A stretch of 64,000 nt of DNA, taken from Vagococcus jeotgali (GTDB lineage Bacteria; Bacillota; Bacilli; Lactobacillales; Vagococcaceae). The stretch lies in NCBI RefSeq assembly GCF_035918315.1, contig NZ_CP142146.1, forward strand, positions 868,001 through 932,000. The letters are read 5' to 3'. The position numbers were made by a program, and so were the translations under genes. Positions 4,084-40,299 of the stretch are shown here, piece by piece; positions within the stretch are counted from its first letter, which is position 1, and every line of letters starts with the position of its first letter. A model generated the notes under the pieces. The model was not told the DNA's origin. It was given only the letters and a program-made list of their open reading frames with translations, and did not search any database.

Positions 4084-4108
4084 GTGAGTTTTAATATTTA
4101 CTTTTTTT

Positions 4109-5349
4109 TCTAAATTGCAACATTAAGTTAGCCACTCTGGTAAAAATATCTAAATATCAGTGTTATTTTATTGAATCCCTTACTTACCAACATGTTTTGA
4201 TCTTTAGATTTTGAATTTCTTCTAAAAATAATATTGCTGGTTGTCTATAGTCTAAAATTTTACGCGGCAAAAGATTAACTTTTTCAGTAGCCAGTTGTAT
4301 GAACTGCTTTGAGTAGTGACAGATAGGCGTTCCTTTCGGAACAAATTGCCGTAATAAACCATTATGTCTTTCGTTTGTTCCTCGTTCCCAAGATGAATAA
4401 GGGTGAGCAAAGTAGATATCAGTCATTTGTTGCAGAGTATCATCAAGTGAGCTAAATTCACTGCCATTATCAGCAGTAATCGATTGAAATATGCTACTAA
4501 ATCGGGCTCTTCCAAACTCATATTTTAACTGTTTAATAGCGTAACTAACAGACTCTTCAGTATGATCATCTAGAACAACAGTAATCATGTAGCGAGTTTT
4601 TCTTTCAACAAGTGTAAGTAGAGCATTATCATCTTTAGATTTTGAACCAATGACACTATCTATTTCCCAATGACCAAACTCTTTTCTAGAATCAATTCTG
4701 CTAGGGCGTTCATCAATTGACTTTCCAAGAGCTTTTTTATGCTTATGACTTCTTTTCTTTTTAGGTGATAACCTGACTTTCATCTTGAGGTGATGATTTC
4801 TGACCGGTAAAAATCCTTTATCAATATAATTATAAAGTGTCTTAGTAGAAACAAGAGGTTTATCCCAAGTCCCTAAAGACTTGATAAAACCAACAATTGC
4901 ATCTGGTGACCAATTAAAGTCTATCATTTGTTTACAGGCATAATTAATAAAATCAACAGCACTAACTAGCTTAGATTTCGAACCACAGCGTTTCCTGTTT
5001 TCTATGTATTTAGCTTGCCCCGTATCAGCAAAATAGAGTTGTTTAGGTTTCTTATTTTCTTTGATTTGCGTGGTCGTTCCTCGTTTAAGCTCATTACTTA
5101 TTGTTTGATGGTGTCGGCCTAATCGTCTACCAATTTCTCTATTAGAGTCTCCCATATTATGCCAAACTTCAATAAGCTGCCTTTCCTTTAAGGAAAGATG
5201 TTTATAACTAGATGTCTTTGTGTTATTCTTAATTTTCACCATGATAAAAATTCCTTTCGTTGTTGGGTAGTTACTTCAATGATACACGAATTTTTACCAT
5301 GGTGTTTTTTTATTATTTTAGAGTGGCTAACTTGATTTTACAACTAAGC
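4109..5349 (-). mobile_element. IS30-family insertion sequence, copy A1 (intact)
   Basis: About 1.24 kb with imperfect ~30-bp terminal inverted repeats sharing the core AAGTTAGCCACTCT. The outer part differs between ends: TTGCAACATT on the left, TTGTAAAATC on the right. Boundaries were placed by comparison with copy A2 (20862-22586), which shares the bases just outside the obvious repeat (CTAAA left, CTAAGC right). It carries one complete transposase gene on the minus strand. No clear target duplication was seen; the IS30 family makes only 2-3 bp. Confidence 0.85.
4184..5242 (-). CDS. IS30-family transposase (type A), full length
   Basis: DDE transposase of 352 residues. The N-terminal helix-turn-helix (residues ~15-55, LSLKERQLIEVWHNMGDSNREIGRRLGRHH) recognises the element ends. 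The DDE catalytic core has EFGHWEIDSVIG, ITADNGSEFSS and the glutamate in SWERGTNERHNGLLRQFVPKG, the classic IS30 signature. A full C-terminus is present, in contrast to copy A2. About five residues differ from A2 in the shared part (e.g. RSHKHKK against RSRQHKK), so the two copies did not arise by very recent duplication. Confidence 0.93.
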   Translation of the reverse strand: MVKIKNNTKTSSYKHLSLKERQLIEVWHNMGDSNREIGRRLGRHHQTISNELKRGTTTQIKENKKPKQLYFADTGQAKYIENRKRCGSKSKLVSAVDFINYACKQMIDFNWSPDAIVGFIKSLGTWDKPLVSTKTLYNYIDKGFLPVRNHHLKMKVRLSPKKKRSHKHKKALGKSIDERPSRIDSRKEFGHWEIDSVIGSKSKDDNALLTLVERKTRYMITVVLDDHTEESVSYAIKQLKYEFGRARFSSIFQSITADNGSEFSSLDDTLQQMTDIYFAHPYSSWERGTNERHNGLLRQFVPKGTPICHYSKQFIQLATEKVNLLPRKILDYRQPAILFLEEIQNLKIKTCW

Positions 5350-11152: not shown

Positions 11153-12661
11153 ATGAACTTAATGACAATTGAAAAACTTTTAAAACAACATAATCTATTA
11201 AAAGAATTTATTCATCAAGATAAATGGACGTATAAATTACCTGTGGAAGATCAAAGGATAACTGATCTTTCCTATGATTCAAGATATGTTTCAACAAACA
11301 CTTTATTTTTCTGTAAAGGCTTAGAGTTTAAAGAAAAATATTTAGATAATGCTATTCAAGAAGGGTTAGAAATCTATATTTCCGAAAATCCTTATGACGT
11401 AGAGGCTAAATTAGGTATTATTGTAACAGATATCAGAAAAGCCATGGCTATCTTAAGTATGGCATTCTATGATTATCCTCAAAACAAACTAACCTTAATT
11501 GGCTATACTGGAACTAAGGGGAAAACTACTGCAGCTTATTTTTTAAAACATATGTTAGATGCCAATAATCATAAAAAAATTGCTATGCTATCAACCATGA
11601 ATTCTACCTTAGATGGGAAAACATTTTTTAAATCAAATCTAACCACTCCGGAATCATTAGATTTATATCGAATGATGGCTGAAGCTGTGTCTTACAACAT
11701 GACACATTTTATTATGGAAGTATCTTCACAAGCTTATAAGTTAGATAGAGTCTACCAATTAATGTTTGATATCGGTATTTTTATGAATATTTCTCCAGAT
11801 CACATTAGTCCAATTGAACACCCGACTTTTGATGATTATTATTACTGTAAGCGTCAATTATTAGATCATTCAAAACGTTTCATTTTAAATTTAGATACAG
11901 TAAATGTCGACTTATTACTAGAAGAAGCTCAAGAAAGACATATCCCAACTCTGACTTATAGTCGCCATTCACATGAGGCTGATTATTGGTGGGAAGTTGT
12001 TGAGGGGAAATCTAATAAGTTTGTTGTAGACAGCCAAAATGATTTATTAGATATTTGTGGAGAATATGAATTAAAGTTAATGGGAGATTTTAATAAAGAT
12101 AATGCTTTAGCAAGCTTGATGGCCTCAGCTCTAGCAGGAAACAAGAAGACTGTTGCTTTTGAAGGTTTATCAAACGCAACAGTCCCTGGTAGAATGGAGC
12201 AATTGATTCAAAAAAATGGCTCTGTTGTCTATGTTGATTATGCTCATAACTTGTTGAGCTTAACTAGCTTATTAGAATTTGCTAGGCAAGAAAGACCTGA
12301 TGGAAAGTTAATTACAGTTATCGGTAGTCCAGGAGACAAGTCTATTTCAAGACGAGAAGATTTTGGTGGTGTACTAAGCCAATTGACTGATTGCGTTATT
12401 TTAACTGCTGATGACCCAGGTCATGAAAAACCAGAAGATATTGCTCAAGACATCAGTCGCTATATTACTAATACTCACGTCACTCAATTATTTGAAATGG
12501 ACCGTGAAAAAGCTATTTGTTTAGCTCTTGAAATGGCTAATCCTGAAGATACGGTGATTTTAGCAGGTAAGGGTAGGGACTTATATCAAAAGGTCAATGG
12601 TGTGGATACGCCTTACATCGGTGATGTCACAATTGCAGAAAAATATATTAATAATATGTAA
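11153..12661 (+). CDS. murE: UDP-N-acetylmuramoyl-tripeptide synthetase (lysine-adding MurE)
   Basis: Cytoplasmic Mur ligase that adds the third stem-peptide residue, L-lysine in this group, to UDP-MurNAc-L-Ala-D-Glu during peptidoglycan synthesis. 502 residues. The N-terminal UDP-binding domain has DLSYDSRYV; the ATP loop TGTKGKT is at 119-125; the central domain has TTPESLDLY and MEVSSQA; the C-terminal domain carries ADDPGHEKPEDIAQ where the third amino acid is selected. That motif is not the DNPR of meso-diaminopimelate enzymes, consistent with lysine. ATG 11162 is an alternative start; the ribosome site is weak for both. Single gene with a bidirectional terminator behind it. Confidence 0.92.
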   Translation: MNLMTIEKLLKQHNLLKEFIHQDKWTYKLPVEDQRITDLSYDSRYVSTNTLFFCKGLEFKEKYLDNAIQEGLEIYISENPYDVEAKLGIIVTDIRKAMAILSMAFYDYPQNKLTLIGYTGTKGKTTAAYFLKHMLDANNHKKIAMLSTMNSTLDGKTFFKSNLTTPESLDLYRMMAEAVSYNMTHFIMEVSSQAYKLDRVYQLMFDIGIFMNISPDHISPIEHPTFDDYYYCKRQLLDHSKRFILNLDTVNVDLLLEEAQERHIPTLTYSRHSHEADYWWEVVEGKSNKFVVDSQNDLLDICGEYELKLMGDFNKDNALASLMASALAGNKKTVAFEGLSNATVPGRMEQLIQKNGSVVYVDYAHNLLSLTSLLEFARQERPDGKLITVIGSPGDKSISRREDFGGVLSQLTDCVILTADDPGHEKPEDIAQDISRYITNTHVTQLFEMDREKAICLALEMANPEDTVILAGKGRDLYQKVNGVDTPYIGDVTIAEKYINNM

Positions 12662-20861: not shown

Positions 20862-20968
20862 GCTTAGTTGTAAAATCAAGTTAGCCACTCTAAAATAATA
20901 AAAAAACACCATGGTAAAAATTCGTGTATCATTGAAGTAACTACCCAACAACGAAAGGAATTTTTATC

Positions 20969-22066
20969 ATGGTGAAAATTAAGAATAACACAAAGACATC
21001 TAGTTATAAACATCTTTCCTTAAAGGAAAGGCAGCTTATTGAAGTTTGGCATAATATGGGAGACTCTAATAGAGAAATTGGTAGACGATTAGGCCGACAC
21101 CATCAAACAATAAGTAATGAGCTTAAACGAGGAACGACCACGCAAATCAAAGAAAATAAGAAACCTAAACAACTCTATTTTGCTGATACGGGGCAAGCTA
21201 AATACATAGAAAACAGGAAACGCTGTGGTTCGAAATCTAAGCTAGTTAGTGCTGTTGATTTTATTAATTATGCTTGTAAACAAATGATAGACTTTAATTG
21301 GTCACCAGATGCAATTGTTGGCTTTATCAAGTCTTTAGGGACTTGGGATAAACCTATTGTTTCTACTAAGACACTTTATAACTATATTGATAAAGGTTTT
21401 TTACCAGTCAGAAATCATCATCTCAAGATGAAAGTTAGACTATCACCTAAAAAGAAAAGAAGTCGTCAGCATAAAAAAGCTCTTGGAAAATCAATTGATG
21501 AACGACCTAGCAAAATTGATTCTAGACAAGAGTTTGGTCATTGGGAAATAGACAGTGTCATTGGTTCAAAATCTAAAGATGATAATGCTCTACTTACACT
21601 TGTTGAAAGAAAAACTCGCTACATGATTACTGTTGTTCTAGATGATCATACTGAAGAGTCTGTTAGTTACGCTATTAAACAGTTAAAATATGAGTTTGGA
21701 AGAGCCCGATTTAGTAGCATATTTCAATCGATTACTGCTGATAATGGCAGTGAATTTAGCTCACTTGATGATACTCTGCAACAAATGACTGATATCTACT
21801 TTGCTCACCCTTATTCATCTTGGGAACGAGGAACAAACGAAAGACATAATGGTTTATTACGGCAATTTGTTCCGAAAGGAACGCCTATCTGTCAGCTAGA
21901 CAAAATTTCATTTCATTGCAATGGCTGGCTTTTTACTGAAAAAGTTCTACTAAATAAACCTCGTTGTGAAGGTGTACCAGGGTTTAGCAAGTTACTGATA
22001 GAAGCCTATTATAGATTTAAACTTAGTATCCAAAAGTCTCCCTGTTCAAAATTTGATAGACTATGA
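20969..22066 (+). pseudogene. IS30-family transposase (type A), copy 2, interrupted
   Basis: The frame is homologous to the A1 transposase for 308 residues, through the last catalytic region and up to PKGTPIC at ~21892. It then runs into inserted sequence (QLDKISFHCNGWLF...) and stops at 22066. The missing 3' part of the gene resumes at ~22374 (TGTCACTACTC...) and continues to 22512. The C-terminal ~44 residues are therefore separated from the rest. The DDE residues are present, but the product is abnormal. Confidence 0.85.
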
Positions 22067-22378
22067 TTTTTCCCAACAATTACCTTCTGATGCTCACAAC
22101 CAGCTAAAGATTATCAAAAGCTCTATTAACTATAAAGTGTCCGAACAGAAATAGAAGAACACGTCAGGAGATTCAAATTTTTTTTGTATCTAAAGAGTCA
22201 ACCTATTAAACAGTTTAAAATTTGAGTTTGTCTTGATCTTTTTAAAAGCACCGACTTTGCTATTTGGTAATGGTACTTTTAGGGGTTACAAATGAATATT
22301 GGTAAAAAATTCTAAAGAATATGGTGAAAATTAAGAATTACACATCTAGTTATAAACATCTTTCCTTAAAGGATGTCA
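21895..22378 (+). other. Interleaved mosaic of IS30-A and IS30-B fragments
   Basis: The insertion in A2, flanked by the 5-bp repeat TGTCA (21890-21894 and 22374-22378). It holds short exact pieces of IS30-B in collinear order (AGCTAGACAAAAT, CCTCGTTGTGAAGGTGTACC, AGTTACTGATAG, GTCTCCCTGTT, TGATTTTTCCCAACAAT, AAAGTGTCCGAACAG, CACGTCAGGAG, TTTGTCTTGATCTTTTTAAA). Between them are pieces of IS30-A, including a shortened copy of the transposase start (ATGGTGAAAATTAAGAAT, 22321). No coding function is left. Either serial microhomology deletion or a consensus artefact. Confidence 0.75.
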
Positions 22379-22845
22379 CTACTCAAAGCAGTTCATACAA
22401 CTGGCTACTGAAAAAGTTAATCTTTTGCCGCGTAAAATTTTAGACTATAGACAACCAGCAACATTATTTTTAGAAGAAATTCAAAATCTAAAGATCAAAA
22501 CATGTTGGTAAGTAAGGGGTTCAATAAAATAACACTGATATTTAGATATTTTTACCAGAGTGGCTAACTTAATGTTGCAATTTAGAAATAAATATATTTT
22601 TTTAAATATCTAAAAAATTAATAGATGAAGCCTAGTAGATACTGTCTAACAATCATACAGTTTTTTCTCTGTTTATCAAAAATTAATTGTCATAAATTTT
22701 ATACTACGATTAACACTTCTTTTCGTTCAGTAGTAATTTACATTTGCCTATCCATATAATCCCCTGATTGAAAAAATATTAAAATGTGATCGTAAATATA
22801 TGCTGATAATGATTTACATAATATTATTATATATAAATATTCAGT

Positions 22846-22880
22846 ATAAAAAAAGTGTGGATCACATCCACACTTTTAGT
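22846..22880 (-). terminator. Terminator of the surface-protein gene
   Basis: Stem GTGTGGAT / ATCCACAC (22855-22862 with 22866-22873), 3-nt loop, A-run on the left giving a U-tail on the minus strand. The stem abuts the stop codon. Confidence 0.85.
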
Positions 22881-25322
22881 GATATATATCTCCAGAAACT
22901 TCTAATCTCTTACGTGACATATAGAAGTATCCAGCCATACCTAATGCAAGTAGTCCAGCTGACATAAGTGAATGAGTTACTTCACCTGTTTTTGGTAGTG
23001 AACTTGCGGCTGCTTTTGGTGCTGACGCACTTGCTGATGGAGCAGAGGCACTAGCTGCAGCAGGTTTTGAAGCTGGTTTAGTTGGTGTATGTGGTTTGAT
23101 TGGATTAATAATACCACCAATTCCATCCACACGTTTCATACTCAACATTGCAAGATTTAATTTTCTTGTCATATCATTTACTTCTTTTTCAGTAAATGCA
23201 TCAACATTACCATCAAGCTTAGCCAACATTGCTTCAGCCTCACCTAAGACAGTTTGCATATCTGCCCATGATTCTTTAGTATAATCTTTTTCTTTTTTAC
23301 TATGTGCTACGCGAATTGCATCTTGTAGATGATCAATAGCTTTTGTAGAAGCAACTCTTTCAAGTTTTAATTCTGCTAATAATAAGTGGTCAAAAGCATC
23401 ATTTATCTCAATTTGAGTTGCTGGTTTCGCTGAATGCTCTGTTTCAGAAACTTCTTCTGCATGTCTTAACGCAATTTCAAAAGAAGTCCATGAATTTGGC
23501 ATATAGTTATGTTGATCTTTCAATTTAGCTTTTTCTATCGCATCATTTAATGCTTTAAAGTCTCTATGAACACTAATTTTAGCCATAACTGCAGCAACTT
23601 CACTTGGTTTTGTTGCTGCTTTTACTTCTTCACGGTAAGCTTCTGCTTGCTCAGGAGTAATTGCCCCAACTAATTCCAATGCATCAATTTCAAGATTTGC
23701 TTTAGCTTTAGCTGCTTCTAAATGAATAAGCATTTCAGCATCTAAAATGTCAGTTTCAATAGAGCTTTTTAGTTTTTCAACTAATGCTTCTAACTCCTCT
23801 TCCGCTATGATTCCCATGTCTCTTAGATGTTCTAACTCTTTAATGATCTCATTTCTAGCGTCTTCCAAGCCTTCTGCAGCTTCAACGATACCTCTAATAA
23901 CATCTGCTTCGATTTCACCTTTTATTTTTTCAAGATACGCTGCTGCTTCTTCTTCAGTTAACTTACCTGCATCTACTAATTCTTGAATATCTTTCTCTGC
24001 TTGTTTCTTAATACCCTGAATCTCATTTGCTGCTTTTGTAATTCCAGCAATAACATCTGCCTAAACTTCTTGTTTTACTTTAGCAATAAATTGCTCCGCA
24101 TCTTCCTCAGCAATCTTGCCATTTTCTAATAATTGGTTAATCTCATCGATAGCATCTTGACGTAATTTATCAATTTCACCAGCAGTTTTGACAAGTTCAG
24201 AAATTACGTTTGCTTCAATAGTTTGTTCAATCTTAGTAATATATGCTTTAGCATCTTGTCTTACCTTTTGAAGTTCACTAGCTGCTGCTGTAATCTCATC
24301 AATAGCTTTTTGTTCAGTTTCTTGCATAATTTTATCAATAAACTGTTTTGCATCAGTTTCTGCAAGTTTACCTAATTTTTCTAAACGAAGAATATCATTA
24401 ATTGCATCAGTTCTTAATTTGCTAAGTGCAGCTGCACCTGCCGTCACAGCTTCAATTAAGTCTTTTTCAACATTATTCATAATGTCTTGTTCAAATTGCT
24501 TAATTTCACTGTCAGCTAAATTTTCTAATTTATGTAACTTAGCAAGTTCAGCTGTTCTCCAGTTAGATAAATCATTAGCTGCTGTAGTTATTACTTTAAT
24601 AGCTTCTTGATCTACTGCTGTTTCAATATCATTAATCAAACCTTCAACTTCTTTTTCACCTAAGTTTTCAAGTTTTTTAATTTCAGCAATGGCATCAGCT
24701 TTTGCTGTAGCTAAATCTTTTTCAACATCATTTTTAGCGTCAGTAATAGCTGTTTGAACGTCTTTTTCGATTGTTAAAAGTTCGTCTATAGCTACTCCGG
24801 CATCTTTAGCTAGTGATGCTTCAATTTTTTCCTGGAATTGTTTAATATCAGACTCCACAATCCCAGGAACTGATGCTAATTCTGCAAGAGCAGTATCTAT
24901 TCGATTTTTTAAGGCTGTTAAAGCAACTTGCTCTGCATCACTTGCAATTTTTTCAATATCTGCAACTGCTGTTTCAGCACCACTTTTAGCTGCAGCTTCA
25001 ATTCCTTGAATTAACTCTTCAGCATTATCAATTAATTCAGCTTTTGCTAATTTTTCAATACGTTGAATCGCATCATCTTTAGCTTGCTGAATGTCTTTTT
25101 CAATGTCACCCACAATACCCTCACGTGGTGCAGAACTTACCGTAGTATGTTTACCTTCTTCTTCTTTTTCTTCTTCTTTATCTTCAGCTACAACTTCTGA
25201 GGATGTAATAGCATTTTCAGTTGTTGAGCTTGTTGTCATTTCTTGAGCTGCTGTAATAGTAGGCAGCATCGTTGAACTTAGTAAAACTGTTAACATTGCT
25301 GATGAAATAGTCTTCTTTTCAT
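22876..25322 (-). pseudogene. LPXTG cell-wall-anchored helical repeat protein, broken by TAG and probable frameshift
   Basis: Large surface protein gene. Order: signal peptide (TISSAMLTVLLSSTMLPTIT, then AAQE), acidic linker, long alpha-helical repeats of ~35-40 residues (AIAEIKKLENLGEKEVEGLI, AINDILRLEKLGKLAETDAK ...), two FIVAR-like modules (NSWTSFEIALRHAEEV; ESWADMQTVLGEAEAML), an Ala/Ser/Pro-rich wall-spanning stretch, and a sorting signal LPKTGE with hydrophobic tail and RKR. Lesion 1: TAG at 24061-24063 lies in frame between the two open parts (25377-24061 and 23868-22876 share one frame). Lesion 2: the only ATG behind the GGAG site, 25322, is one base out of frame; one more A in AAAA would give MKKKTISSAML. 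A GTG at 25377 is in frame but has no ribosome site. Any product of the first part would be secreted without an anchor. Confidence 0.8.
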
Positions 25323-25473
25323 GTAATAACGTCTCCTTTTTGATAATTTTTAATATAACATAACTATTATAATGCACACTATCATTATATCTGAAATAGT
25401 TTTATATTTTTAGCAAGAAATTTCGTTTAGATATGAGTAAAAAAATGGTTATTCTTTTGTTTTTCCAAAAGCC

Positions 25474-25994: not shown

Positions 25995-26744
25995 CTACAA
26001 ATCAAAAAACTGTAGTAAACTTGTCATGTCAAGTTTGTGTTTTTCTTCCTGAGATAGATCAACACTAATCTGTCCTGAATCAAGAACAATCAAGCGATTG
26101 CCGTAAGTTAGAGCATCTTCCATACGATGAGTGATCATTAAACAAGTCAATTTATTATCACTAATGGTACTTGCCGTCAACTCCATTAATTGCTTGCTTG
26201 TTTTTGGATCAAGAGCAGCAGTGTGTTCATCTAATAATAATATATCAGGTTTTTGAATGGTTGCCATTAATAAGCTTAGAGCTTGTCTTTGCCCTCCAGA
26301 TAAATGTCCTGCTGGTGTGTCGATGTGTTGCTCCAGTCCATTACCTGTTTTTTGGCATAATTCAAAAAATAATTCCTTTTGTTGGTTTAATTCTCGCCTC
26401 TTAAGGCCACGCTTCTTTCCTCTTAGTTGAGCTAATAACAAGTTTTCAGCAACTGTCATTCTAGGTGCTGTTCCTTGCTTTGGATCTTGAAATACTCTAG
26501 CGATATATTTAGCTCTTTTTTCCTCTGAATCTTTCGTCACATTTTGTTGACTGATGAAAACATTACCACTGGTTAAATCAAGTTGACCTGAGATAGTATT
26601 AAATAAAGTTGACTTTCCAGCACCATTCCCACCTAATATCGTAATGAAATCACCTTCATTTACGGTAAGGTTCAAGTGATTCATAATCACACGTCCCTCA
26701 TCAACTTCTTTATACCCATTTTGAATACTTAAGACCGATTTCAT
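25995..26744 (-). CDS. trpZ: ABC transporter ATP-binding protein (tryptophan-type uptake system)
   Basis: 249-residue ATPase powering the importer encoded with the next two genes. Walker A GGNGAGKST is at ~38-46, the signature LSGGQRQALSL at ~148, Walker B ILLLDEHTAALD, and the switch His in CLMITHRMED. It overlaps the permease stop by four bases (ATGA), which implies translational coupling. The substrate is inferred from the Trp leader peptide upstream and from similarity of the set to streptococcal TrpXYZ. Confidence 0.88.
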   Translation of the reverse strand: MKSVLSIQNGYKEVDEGRVIMNHLNLTVNEGDFITILGGNGAGKSTLFNTISGQLDLTSGNVFISQQNVTKDSEEKRAKYIARVFQDPKQGTAPRMTVAENLLLAQLRGKKRGLKRRELNQQKELFFELCQKTGNGLEQHIDTPAGHLSGGQRQALSLLMATIQKPDILLLDEHTAALDPKTSKQLMELTASTISDNKLTCLMITHRMEDALTYGNRLIVLDSGQISVDLSQEEKHKLDMTSLLQFFDL

Positions 26745-38035: not shown

Positions 38036-39363
38036 GGTTGCGTCAAGAATTATGTGTAAATGGAAAATCCATTCCATTTTTTTAAGTTAAAACATTGATT
38101 CTAATGTATCTTGTATTTCCTTAAATCCTTTATGTACTCTGCCTAAAAATTTTTGGTTATATTCATTGAACTGAGAAACAAGGAATCTCTCCAGAGATTC
38201 TTCATTAGGAAATTGTTCTTTTCTCTTTGTATATTTTTTTAACTGTTTATTAAATCCCTCAATCAAGTTAGTTGAGTAGATAGTTCTTCTGATTGATGGT
38301 GGGAAGTTATAGAAAGTTAATATAGCAGGATTCAAGAGTAATTTAACTACTCGTGGATACTGCTTTTTCCATTTATCTATCATAAAACTTATTTGATTCA
38401 TAGCTTCTTCTTTTGAAGCTGCTTGATAAACCAATTTGAAATCATTACAGACTTCTTGTCGATCACTAACACGAACCTTATGAGCAATATTTCTAGAGAT
38501 ATGGACACAACATTGTTGAAATTGAGCATTTGGATAGACACTATGGATACTATCGTGAATACCACTTAAACCATCAGTTACAACTAATAAAACCTCTTCT
38601 AAACCACGATCTTTTAAATCTTGAAGTATCTCTTTCCAAACATAAGCAGATTCGGTTGGAGCAATAGTAAATCCTAGAACCTCTTTGGTTCCATCCAATC
38701 GAATGCCTATCACAATATAAACGGCTTCTTTTGATACGGTTTGTCTCTTTAAAGGAATATGAGTAGCATCCATAAAAATGACTGAGTATTTAGCTTCTAA
38801 AGTTCTTTCTTTAAAAGCCAAAACATCTTCAGATACGATTTTACTCATGTTTGAAATAGTTTGTGGTGTGTAATAATGACCATACATTTTTTCAATTAGA
38901 TCAGAGATTTCAGACATAGTGATCCCTTTTTTAAATAGCTGAATAATAGTAGTTTCTAAGGAATCATTGGTTCTTTTATAGGCTGGTAATGTTTGTTGGG
39001 AAAATTCTCCATTTCTATCTCTAGGAATCACCAAATTTAATTCTCCATATTCTGTTTTAAATGAACGTGAGTAATTCCCATTGCGGGAATTACCTGAATT
39101 AAATCCAGCTCTATCATACTTTTCGTAGTCAAGAAACGCTGTTAATTCAGCCTGTAATAATGAGTTGATAGCGAGTTCTAAATGACGACGAAATAAATCA
39201 TCTAAATCACCTTTATTAATTAGTGTTTCCATTATTTCTGTAGTAAAATGAGTCATGAGAAAGTCCTCCTATAAAATTTCTGTGTCGTAACTTTAATTTT
39301 ACAGAATGGACTTTCTCTTTTTCTACCCTAAATTTCTATTTACACAAAATATTTTACCCTATC
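38036..39363 (-). mobile_element. IS256-family insertion sequence, copy 3
   Basis: 1328 bp, same ends as copies 1 and 2. Flanked by the perfect 8-bp duplication TAAGGAGG (38028-38035 and 39364-39371). The target was the ribosome binding site of the marR remnant, and the duplication leaves a complete copy in place. Confidence 0.95.
38087..39256 (-). CDS. IS256-family transposase, copy 3
   Basis: Identical in protein sequence to the transposases at 9737 and 18040 and placed identically within the element. Complete. Confidence 0.95.
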   Translation of the reverse strand: MTHFTTEIMETLINKGDLDDLFRRHLELAINSLLQAELTAFLDYEKYDRAGFNSGNSRNGNYSRSFKTEYGELNLVIPRDRNGEFSQQTLPAYKRTNDSLETTIIQLFKKGITMSEISDLIEKMYGHYYTPQTISNMSKIVSEDVLAFKERTLEAKYSVIFMDATHIPLKRQTVSKEAVYIVIGIRLDGTKEVLGFTIAPTESAYVWKEILQDLKDRGLEEVLLVVTDGLSGIHDSIHSVYPNAQFQQCCVHISRNIAHKVRVSDRQEVCNDFKLVYQAASKEEAMNQISFMIDKWKKQYPRVVKLLLNPAILTFYNFPPSIRRTIYSTNLIEGFNKQLKKYTKRKEQFPNEESLERFLVSQFNEYNQKFLGRVHKGFKEIQDTLESMF

Positions 39364-39376
39364 TAAGGAGGACTTT

Positions 39377-39790
39377 ATGACACTAAATAATGATATAGAC
39401 AACATGTTTAATGATATTAGGTTATTTTGCCTCTGAAGTACACTGTATCGAATTTATTGGAAAAAGCAAAGAAATTAATGTTAAAAAATTGTCAGAACAT
39501 TTTTTTATGACTCGTGGCGCAATGAGTAAAATCACAAAAAAATAAATTGATAAACAAGCCATTACAAGTTATCAAAAAGATGACAATAAAAAAGAGAGCT
39601 TTTACTTACTCAAGAAGGACAGCGTATTTTTGATACCCATGAATCACTTCACCAAACCTTTAGAATGCGTGATCAAGACATATTAGATGAACTGACAGAT
39701 GAAACAATTAAAGAAATTAACTATTTTTTAAGACGTTATAATGACCATTTATCTAATGAAATTGATAAAGAATCCCTAAAAAAATCATAA
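39377..39790 (+). pseudogene. MarR-family regulator, decayed
   Basis: ATG 39377 follows AAGGAGG by 5 nt but the frame stops after 19 codons. The homologous reading continues in other frames. It passes through the winged-helix part (FASEVHCIEFIGK; NVKKLSEHFFMTRGAMSKIT), a TAA where an amino acid is expected (~39542), and after a further shift near 39610 TQEGQRIFDTHESLHQTFRM ... LKKS with stop at 39790. At least two frameshifts and one nonsense codon. A typical neighbour arrangement of MarR repressor and efflux pump with the MFS remnant that follows. Confidence 0.75.
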
Positions 39791-39802
39791 TAACCATCTC
39801 TT

Positions 39803-40299
39803 GAGACTGATATTAAACTGCTTTCTTTTTTAGTAGCGCCCTACGTCAGTCAAGCAAATCATCAAACGATTATTGTAACAATGCTTATTTCAATCTATGC
39901 ATTATTTGTCTTTTTTTCTTCTCCATTATGGGTAGCCTAAGTGATAAATATGATAAACGTCCTATTTTACTCATTAATCTTTTAGGCTCTTCCTTGGGAT
40001 TTTTTATTTTTGGTGTTGGTGGTGCCTTATGGGTTTTATTTGTAGGAAGAATCATCGAAGGGATAACTGGTGGTATTATTGGGACTCTTTTTGCTTACTT
40101 TTCTGATTTAGTTCCAAAAAAAGAACGTACCAAATATTTTGGCTGGATTAGTGCAGTTGCTGGGGTTGGTTCTATGGCTGGTCCTATTTTAGGAGGAGCT
40201 TTAACTATCTTTGGCCTTAAAACACTCTTTTTTCCTACACTACTTGGTGTTATCTTTTGTTTTACAGCTCTTTTATACACAAAAAAACTATCAGAGTGA
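39803..40299 (+). pseudogene. MFS drug-efflux-type transporter, truncated and frameshifted
   Basis: First half of a 12-helix major facilitator. The opening helix region (KLLSFLVAPYVSQANHQTII, then VTMLISIYALFVFFSSPL) is separated by a frameshift near 39930 from SLSDKYDKRPILLINLLGSS. That contains the MFS signature loop (GxLaDrxgrkp-type), followed by FVGRIIEGITGGIIGTLFAY and GWISAVAGVGSMAGPILGG (antiporter motif). The frame ends at 40299 after about the sixth helix, straight into a terminator. The C-terminal half is missing. Probably once controlled by the adjacent MarR. Confidence 0.75.

What the first reader, a model, noticed from the sequence alone, without database searches (positions are those of the whole stretch)
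22876..25322. LPXTG surface protein gene broken twice: in-frame TAG and a one-base slip at the start codon
The two open parts (25377-24061 and 23868-22876) share one frame and are separated by a single TAG, where repeats elsewhere have Glu (GAG to TAG is one change). The only ATG with a ribosome site (25322) is one base out of frame; one more A in its A-run gives MKKKTISSAML, a classic signal start. This could be decay, a reversible off-state, or read-through producing a mix of secreted and anchored forms.
Basis: seen in the sequence. Interest (0 to 1): 0.65.

Follow-up and report, generated by a model that had tools for sequence, protein, structure and literature searches.

The report
Decayed cell-wall surface protein gene
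A gene for a long protein once fastened to the bacterium's outer wall has been broken in two places, one of several surface genes lost in a genome crowded with jumping DNA; this looks like ordinary gene decay, not a new switch.

Summary
On the minus strand one frame runs from 25320 to 22876 with a single in-frame TAG (24063-24061). The ATG with a good ribosome site (25322) is out of register with it and gives a 10-residue peptide. Codon usage stays gene-like across the TAG, the repeats continue across it, and the one intact homologue covering the site aligns through it.

Best reading: a recently inactivated LPXTG surface-protein pseudogene. Of 7 sorting signals in this genome, 4 lie in broken or headless genes. 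Among the 60 congener genes checked, 51 could be compared and 2 lack an intact frame. All 5 sortase matches are open.

Read-through is unlikely: no UAG-reading tRNA at 52 tRNA places. Slippage back at the start is unlikely: the A-run there has 4 bases. But a related gene in congener G002 has the same start offset, so start-proximal A-runs may be a recurrent weak spot. A sequencing error cannot be excluded without reads.

The parts
25366..25395 (-). promoter-like match (10 of 12) before the gene
   Evidence: 7 matches in the region against a shuffle mean of 11.4, so suggestive only
25333..25338 (-). ribosome-binding-site-like AAGGAG, 10 bases before ATG 25322
   Evidence: read directly from sequence
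25290..25322 (-). 10-codon ORF from the ATG with the ribosome site; out of register with the long frame
25294..25296 (-). first ATG in the long frame after the ribosome site; overlaps the stop of the 10-codon ORF (ATGTTAA)
24064..25320 (-). first open part (419 codons): signal-peptide relic, then helical repeats of about 50 residues; one stretch resembles a GA module
   Evidence: GA 22.6 bits, cut-off 24; low-confidence fold
24061..24063 (-). in-frame TAG inside a repeat unit (24162-24010)
22876..24060 (-). second open part (394 codons plus stop): remaining repeats, FIVAR domain, sorting signal
23560..24705 (-). eight related helical repeat units, in register across the TAG
   Evidence: unit borders chosen by eye
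23149..23331 (-). FIVAR domain (32.1 bits, cut-off 29.2)
22906..23019 (-). LPXTG sorting signal (LPKTG at 22998-22984, hydrophobic stretch, basic residues; 26.2 bits, cut-off 20)
22851..22877 (-). terminator-like hairpin with T run right after the gene
   Evidence: 1 found, shuffle mean 1.5
20862..22592 (+). IS30-like element about 280 bases downstream of the gene; its end matches at least 30 other places in the genome
   Evidence: the IS30 label is mine, from HTH_38 and a sub-cut-off rve match

Best explanation
This is a recently inactivated gene (pseudogene) for a sortase-anchored surface protein of about 810 residues: signal peptide, a rod of GA-like helical repeats, a FIVAR domain, and an LPXTG sorting signal. 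Two separate lesions stop it. A frame error beside the short A-run at the start codon puts the ribosome-linked ATG out of register, and a nonsense codon in the repeats cuts the frame about halfway. Shown: both lesions in the assembly, intact coding character on both sides, one intact homologue that crosses the nonsense site, and an unusual share of broken or headless surface-protein genes in this genome. Inferred: that no functional product is made, that the loss is recent (no further stop or frame break in 813 codons), and that the cause is relaxed selection on surface proteins in an IS-rich genome, not regulation.
For: Single TAG in an otherwise open frame, and ATG 25322 out of register. Uniform codon signal across the TAG, including 24060-23868, which has no start codon of its own. 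Repeat register continues across the TAG, sense codons in 7 of 7 sister units. The 865-aa LPXTG protein of congener G008 aligns over 24207-23521 in one frame with a residue opposite the TAG (30% identity, E 4e-11; a 3-residue gap follows two residues later), and an 831-aa open protein of G013 with an LPKTN-type end aligns over the FIVAR and anchor part. Genome-wide, 7 sorting signals pass the Pfam cut-off. Three lie in ORFs with a signal-like start, judged by eye (L079, L081, L082). Four do not: this gene; L078, matching only residues 793-864 of the G008 protein and joined to IS30 sequence; L083, matching only residues 545-864; L080, a headless fragment. Control: of the first 60 congener rows (60 of 196 congener matches), 49 have an open frame from a signal-like start to the anchor (38 by script, 11 by eye), 5 are tiny ORFs of 48-56 codons, 4 could not be judged (3 contig ends, 1 run of N), and 2 lack an intact start (L166, L186). 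4 of 7 against 2 of 51 gives Fisher p 0.001, rows not independent. Five of 5 sortase matches are open. IS load: at least 30 other places match the IS30 end, 27 over at least 187 bases (only 40 of 163 candidates were scored), and nine IS copies of four families are in the window. Precedent: PMC3017865 (passages) reports nearly 400 pseudogenes among secretome genes of lactic acid bacteria.
Against: No orthologue was found, so the ancestral protein is inferred from repeats and domain homologues. One genome of the species is held, so it is unknown whether all strains carry the lesions. One restart route (ATG 25296 overlapping the short ORF's stop) could still give some N-terminal product. The 10 of 10 window genes comparable with congener stretches are intact, so decay is not everywhere. 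A related gene in congener G002 has the same start offset; two such cases at the same spot are more than random lesions would lead one to expect and could hint at a hot spot or a switch.
Confidence: 0.82

Rival explanations
1. One or both lesions are sequencing or assembly errors and the gene is intact in the organism.
For: A one-base error next to an A-run is a common sequencing error (general knowledge), and no reads were available. Only one assembly is held.
Against: The 10 of 10 non-IS window genes with a match of at least 45% identity among ORFs of 12 congener stretches read in one frame at near full length. None of the six 6-base A-runs inside the gene carries a frame error. A TAG is a substitution and not a homopolymer error. 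Other surface genes in the same genome are cut by obvious large events.
Confidence: 0.1
2. The locus is partly expressed: ribosomes finish the 10-codon ORF, restart at the overlapping in-frame ATG 25296, and make an unanchored N-terminal product that ends at the TAG.
For: The ATGTTAA overlap is a usual geometry for translational coupling (general knowledge); a ribosome site and a promoter-like site remain. Truncated, secreted internalin A from nonsense alleles is known: title of Nightingale 2005 as cited in PMC5131979 (reference list passage).
Against: A product starting at 25296 (MLTVLLSS...) has lost the charged start of the signal peptide, so export should be poor (inference). Nothing shows that the product is used, and the sorting signal is lost.
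Confidence: 0.04
3. A reversible off-state (phase variation) through slippage in the A-run at the start codon.
For: Listeria monocytogenes inlA, also an LPXTG gene, has a 5' poly(A) tract whose frameshift stops translation after 8 residues; A6 to A7 reversion was about 5.5e-7 (PMC2831843, section 9 read in full). A related gene in congener G002 has the same start offset beside a 5-base A-run. Of 34 intact congener ATG starts looked at, 17 have an A-run of 6 or more in the first codons. I raised this from 0.01 to 0.03 because of the G002 gene.
Against: The run here is 4 A's. In the inlA study the A2GA4 allele gave no deletion revertants in three replicates (below about 3e-10); only deletions were measured there, so the yardstick is indirect. 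A second lesion of another kind lies downstream here, and the G002 gene carries a further frame change and a TAG, so both look dead and not merely off. Only 1 of the 60 congener rows checked showed such an offset.
Confidence: 0.03
4. Programmed read-through of the TAG giving a mix of secreted and anchored forms.
For: The frame stays open and gene-like after the TAG.
Against: ARAGORN on loci that by coordinates cover the 52 tRNA places found shows no anticodon for UAG. The one homologue that covers the site continues. The start lesion is unexplained by read-through.
Confidence: 0.01

Closest known systems
LPXTG and mucus-binding surface-protein pseudogenes of lactic acid bacteria (LAB-Secretome, PMC3017865; passages read)
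   Same: Large anchored surface proteins broken by frameshifts or truncation, with the parts still recognisable; several families hold many pseudogenes.
   Different: Other domain (MUB) and other species; there mostly frameshifts, here a frame error at the start plus a nonsense codon. That paper leaves open whether some still work through strand slipping.
Surface-protein pseudogenes of bovine Staphylococcus aureus ET3-1 (PMC2040198; passages read)
   Same: spa, clfA, sdrC, ebh and other surface genes carry premature stops in one lineage.
   Different: There intact alleles exist in other strains and spa, ebh, fmhA and sdrC were checked by PCR and sequencing; here only one genome is held. IS elements explain under 4% of pseudogenes there.
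Listeria monocytogenes inlA nonsense and 5' frameshift alleles (PMC5131979 passages; PMC2831843 passages and section 9)
   Same: LPXTG gene lost either by internal premature stops or by a frame error just after the start that leaves a very short peptide.
   Different: In the passages I read these are alleles of different isolates, and a 6-7 base poly(A) tract makes one of them revertible; here both lesions are in one copy and the run is 4 bases.
Staphylococcus aureus subsp. anaerobius (PMC8171923; passages read)
   Same: IS expansion, rearrangement and many pseudogenes in one genome.
865-aa repeat LPXTG protein of congener G008 (locus L076, 8967-6370, minus strand)
   Same: Same plan: short signal, about 50-residue helical repeats, anchor; 30% identity across the TAG site.
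   Different: Open throughout; other repeat sequence. At the anchor end it matches the fragments L083 and L078, not this gene.
Broken LPXTG/FIVAR gene of congener G002 (loci L028, L166)
   Same: Matches the C part of this gene at 26% (E 5e-10); its ATG with a ribosome site is out of register in the same way and reads 10 residues; it also has an in-frame TAG.
   Different: Shorter, has one more frame change, and lies close to a contig end of a draft assembly.

Membership tests
LPXTG sortase-anchored surface protein (ancestral state) | C-terminal sorting signal: LPXTG, hydrophobic stretch, basic residues | tested here: met
   Pfam Gram_pos_anchor 26.2 bits against cut-off 20; TIGR01167 23.9 against 15.9
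LPXTG sortase-anchored surface protein (ancestral state) | N-terminal signal peptide in frame with a translatable start | tested here: not met
   signal-like residues are present in the long frame but the ATG with the ribosome site is out of register
LPXTG sortase-anchored surface protein (ancestral state) | one uninterrupted frame from signal to anchor | tested here: not met
   TAG at 24063-24061
LPXTG sortase-anchored surface protein (ancestral state) | sortase in the genome | tested here: met
   5 PF04203 matches over cut-off, open frames of 233-348 codons, no stops
GA-module (albumin-binding type) proteins | GA module over the curated cut-off | tested here: inconclusive
   22.6 bits against 24 in the N part, 15.3 in the C part; single-sequence fold nearly all helical after the first 65 residues but pLDDT 50.5; albumin binding not testable
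FIVAR-domain surface proteins | FIVAR domain over the curated cut-off | tested here: met
   32.1 bits against 29.2
Pseudogene | frame interrupted where intact homologues continue | tested here: met
   one domain-level homologue aligned through the TAG; no true orthologue to compare
Pseudogene | no functional product | not testable with these tools
   needs proteomics or ribosome profiling
Phase-variable contingency locus | hypermutable tract at the switch point | tested here: not met
   4-base A-run; longest A-runs in the gene are 6 bases, elsewhere and in frame; the G002 relative has a 5-base run
Phase-variable contingency locus | both states found in a population | not testable with these tools
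   one genome, no reads
Programmed stop-codon read-through | UAG-decoding tRNA or a stop shared with homologues | tested here: not met
   no such anticodon at 52 tRNA places; the one homologue covering the site continues

The most novel reading that the evidence does not exclude
Slippage in the A-run just behind the start codon is a recurrent off-mutation of this group of surface genes: it happened here and in a related gene of congener G002 with the same offset, each time leaving a 10-residue peptide. The gene may have been a switchable adhesin first turned off at its start and only later locked by a nonsense codon; here the short leader's stop also overlaps an in-frame ATG, so a little truncated, unanchored protein might still be made.
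Probability: 0.06. Interest if true: 0.4.

Novelty: new member of a known kind. Interest (0 to 1): 0.14.

Why it matters
Modestly. The gene itself is one more surface-protein pseudogene. The pattern is more useful: 4 of 7 sorting-signal genes in this genome are broken or headless, by more than one kind of event, against 2 of 51 comparable genes sampled from congeners, while the sortases stay open. That points to relaxed selection on surface proteins in an IS-rich lineage. It also warns against annotating the two halves as two proteins or as a read-through pair. The shared start offset with the G002 gene makes start-proximal A-runs worth checking as a weak spot of such genes.

Tried and rejected
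Orthologue search: DNA of the gene against 40 other related genomes gave only short matches of 23-55 bases in 10 of them, best E 1.1e-7. The N part had no match in 13 of 13 congeners at E 0.001 or in 28 of 28 other family genomes, congeners included, at E 1e-6. The C part has weak repeat, FIVAR or anchor matches in 11 of 13 congeners at E 0.001 and in 7 of 394 other genomes of the order at E 1e-8, with 4 candidates scored per listed genome. A scan of genome contigs with the C part found none, and megablast of the gene against plasmids found none; both tools say that records very near the window may be left out.

Naming the species: a scan of genome contigs with the neighbouring ABC substrate-binding protein gave 8 relatives at 31-54% identity, best Enterococcus dispar; the IS cluster matched mostly Enterococcus plasmids, 404 of 471 records. 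Vagococcus was a guess that guided two paper searches and one paper look-up and was not shown.

Structure: one single-sequence prediction of the N part was mostly helical but of low confidence (pLDDT 50.5), so no fold search was run and no weight is put on it.

Suppressor tRNA: looked for and not found. Programmed frameshifting at the start: the bases after the ATG do not form a classic slippery heptamer (my reading; no tool). Weak NCBIfam matches to very large enzymes (for example ZmpB, 35.4 bits against a cut-off of 3000) were not taken as membership. A weak Pfam Ntox28 match (19.1 bits, cut-off 25, E 0.0015) lies in the repeat region and was dismissed.

Odds changed: reversible off-state 0.01 to 0.03, coupled restart 0.05 to 0.04, best explanation 0.83 to 0.82.

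Full report
What is there. On the minus strand, one reading frame runs from 25320 to the stop at 22878-22876, 813 sense codons, with a single stop inside, TAG at 24063-24061. The only ATG with a good ribosome site that I see, 25322, is not in that frame; it reads ten codons and stops at 25290. The first in-frame ATG after it, 25296, overlaps that stop. The GTG at 25377, where a mechanical ORF list starts the frame, lies inside the best promoter-like match (25395-25366), though such matches are no more frequent here than in shuffled sequence. A terminator-like hairpin follows the gene at 22877-22851.

What the gene was. The frame starts with a signal-peptide-like stretch, then helical repeats of about 50 residues. 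One stretch resembles a GA module but stays below the Pfam cut-off (22.6 against 24 bits). A FIVAR domain (32.1 against 29.2) and a sorting signal (26.2 against 20; LPKTG at 22998-22984) follow. This is the plan of a sortase-anchored surface protein. Congener G008 has an open 865-residue protein of the same plan that aligns with the window from 24207 to 23521 in one frame, with a residue opposite the TAG and a small gap just after, at 30% identity (E 4e-11). An 831-residue open protein of G013 (its anchor-like end reads LPKTN) aligns with the FIVAR and anchor part only. So the one homologue that covers the site does not end there.

Why it is a recently dead gene. Codon usage, scored with 12 long window ORFs taken as reference, favours the long frame in 16 of 16 successive 150-base segments, with no drop after the TAG, including 24060-23868 where the list shows no start codon. 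The repeat units keep their register across the TAG, and all 7 other units aligned have a sense codon there. So the second half was made as protein until recently (inference). Two lesions of different kinds, one at the start and one in the middle, are more than a single switch would need.

Setting. The genome is one contig of 2,016,295 bases. The end of the IS30-like element about 280 bases downstream matches at least 30 other places, 27 of them over at least 187 bases; only 40 of 163 candidates were scored, so this is a lower bound. The window holds nine IS copies: three IS256, three IS3-like, two IS30-like and one ISL3 (the IS3 and IS30 labels are mine). The sorting-signal family has 7 matches over cut-off, against 5 to 29 matches in the 13 congeners. 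Of the 7, three are in ORFs with a signal-like start by eye (L079, L081, L082). Four are not: the present gene; L078, which keeps only the part matching residues 793-864 of the G008 protein and is joined to IS30 sequence; L083, which keeps only the part matching residues 545-864; and L080, a headless fragment just behind another gene. For L080 no intact relative was found, so its status rests on the lack of a start and signal alone. All 5 sortase matches are open. Elsewhere in the window, a short MFS fragment (39928-40299; profile positions 52-171 of 347) and a regulator-like frame broken by a stop and a frame change lie beyond an IS256 copy (the regulator reading is mine, no search was made). 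By contrast, 10 of 10 non-IS window genes with a match of at least 45% identity among ORFs of 12 congener stretches are intact, so the assembly is not generally full of frame errors.

Control in congeners. I took the first 60 congener rows (of 196 congener matches), fetched them and asked whether the anchor frame opens at a signal-like start. Result: 49 yes (38 by script, 11 by eye because the script's ribosome-site or hydrophobicity rule missed them), 5 tiny ORFs of 48-56 codons, 4 not judged (L144, L151, L173 at contig ends; L157 with a run of N), 2 no (L166 of G002, L186 of G008). Against the own genome, 4 of 7 versus 2 of 51 (Fisher p 0.001). The rows include orthologues of one another, so the p-value is only a guide, and the own genes were judged with more care than the congener genes.

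A parallel that I had first passed over. The G002 gene (L166; also L028) is related to the C part of this gene (26% identity, E 5e-10). Its ATG with a ribosome site is out of register with its signal-peptide frame in the same way, beside a 5-base A-run, and reads ten residues. It also has a later frame change and an in-frame TAG, at another place in the gene. It lies close to a contig end in a draft genome. Of 34 intact congener ATG starts looked at, 17 have an A-run of 6 or more in the first codons. So the start is a plausible weak spot for slippage in such genes. This favours a mutational hot spot, and leaves a small place for a former switch.

Rivals. A sequencing error at one lesion cannot be excluded without reads; I give it 0.1. 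Phase variation: the A-run at this start is four bases. In Listeria inlA, a 5' A6 tract reverted at about 5.5e-7, whereas the A2GA4 allele gave no deletion revertants (below about 3e-10); only deletions were measured (PMC2831843, section 9 read in full). Read-through: ARAGORN on loci that by coordinates cover the 52 tRNA places found showed no anticodon for UAG. Coupled restart at 25296 is possible on paper; its product would lack the charged start of the signal peptide and the anchor.

What is known. Broken surface-protein genes are a familiar kind. PMC3017865 (passages) reports nearly 400 pseudogenes among secretome genes of lactic acid bacteria, mostly frameshifts, and leaves open whether some might still work through strand slipping. 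PMC2040198 (passages) reports premature stops in spa, clfA, sdrC, ebh and others in a bovine S. aureus strain. PMC5131979 (passages) summarises premature stops in inlA, and its reference list cites work titled as showing truncated, secreted internalin A. PMC8171923 (passages) describes IS expansion with 205 pseudogenes in S. aureus subsp. anaerobius.

Limits. No orthologue of this gene was found: short DNA matches only in 40 related genomes, none for the N part in 28 other family genomes, none by a genome-contig scan with the C part. Only one genome of the species was available, so whether the loss is strain-wide or species-wide is open.

Noticed in passing
L166 (G002:C8:118540-119949, minus strand): Related LPXTG/FIVAR gene of a congener with an out-of-register start of the same offset, a second frame change and an in-frame TAG.
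   Followed up: partly
window 39364-40299: Beyond the IS256 copy at 38036-39364, a regulator-like frame broken by a stop and a frame change, followed by a 123-codon MFS transporter fragment.
   Followed up: partly
window 20862-22592 compared with 4103-5349: This IS30-like copy has about 470 bases (its positions 1044-1512) that the four other copies examined (window 4103-5349, L078, L079, L080) lack, apart from an inverted piece of about 55 bases of the element itself; it may hold an insert.
   Followed up: no
window 11153-12661 and 25995-26744: These two genes lie close together on the same strand in congener stretches L065, L071, L072 and L074 but on opposite strands here with IS copies between: an IS-associated rearrangement with the surface gene in the gap.
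   Followed up: partly
L083 5008-5811 and L078 4098-4337: Two C-terminal LPXTG fragments with nearly the same anchor end, both resembling the open 865-aa protein of congener G008: probably remnants of one surface-protein family.
   Followed up: partly
L168, L172, L175, L177, L184: Five congeners share a tiny ORF (48-56 codons) that begins MLPQTGEVIMNWLPYIG and is little more than a sorting signal behind a ribosome site; odd and conserved.
   Followed up: no
G000:C1:29056-30421 (loci L097, L098): The tRNA cluster holds a block (Ser-Met-Asp-(Phe)-Gly-Ile-Ser-Glu) present twice in tandem with nearly the same spacing, probably a recent duplication of tRNA genes.
   Followed up: no
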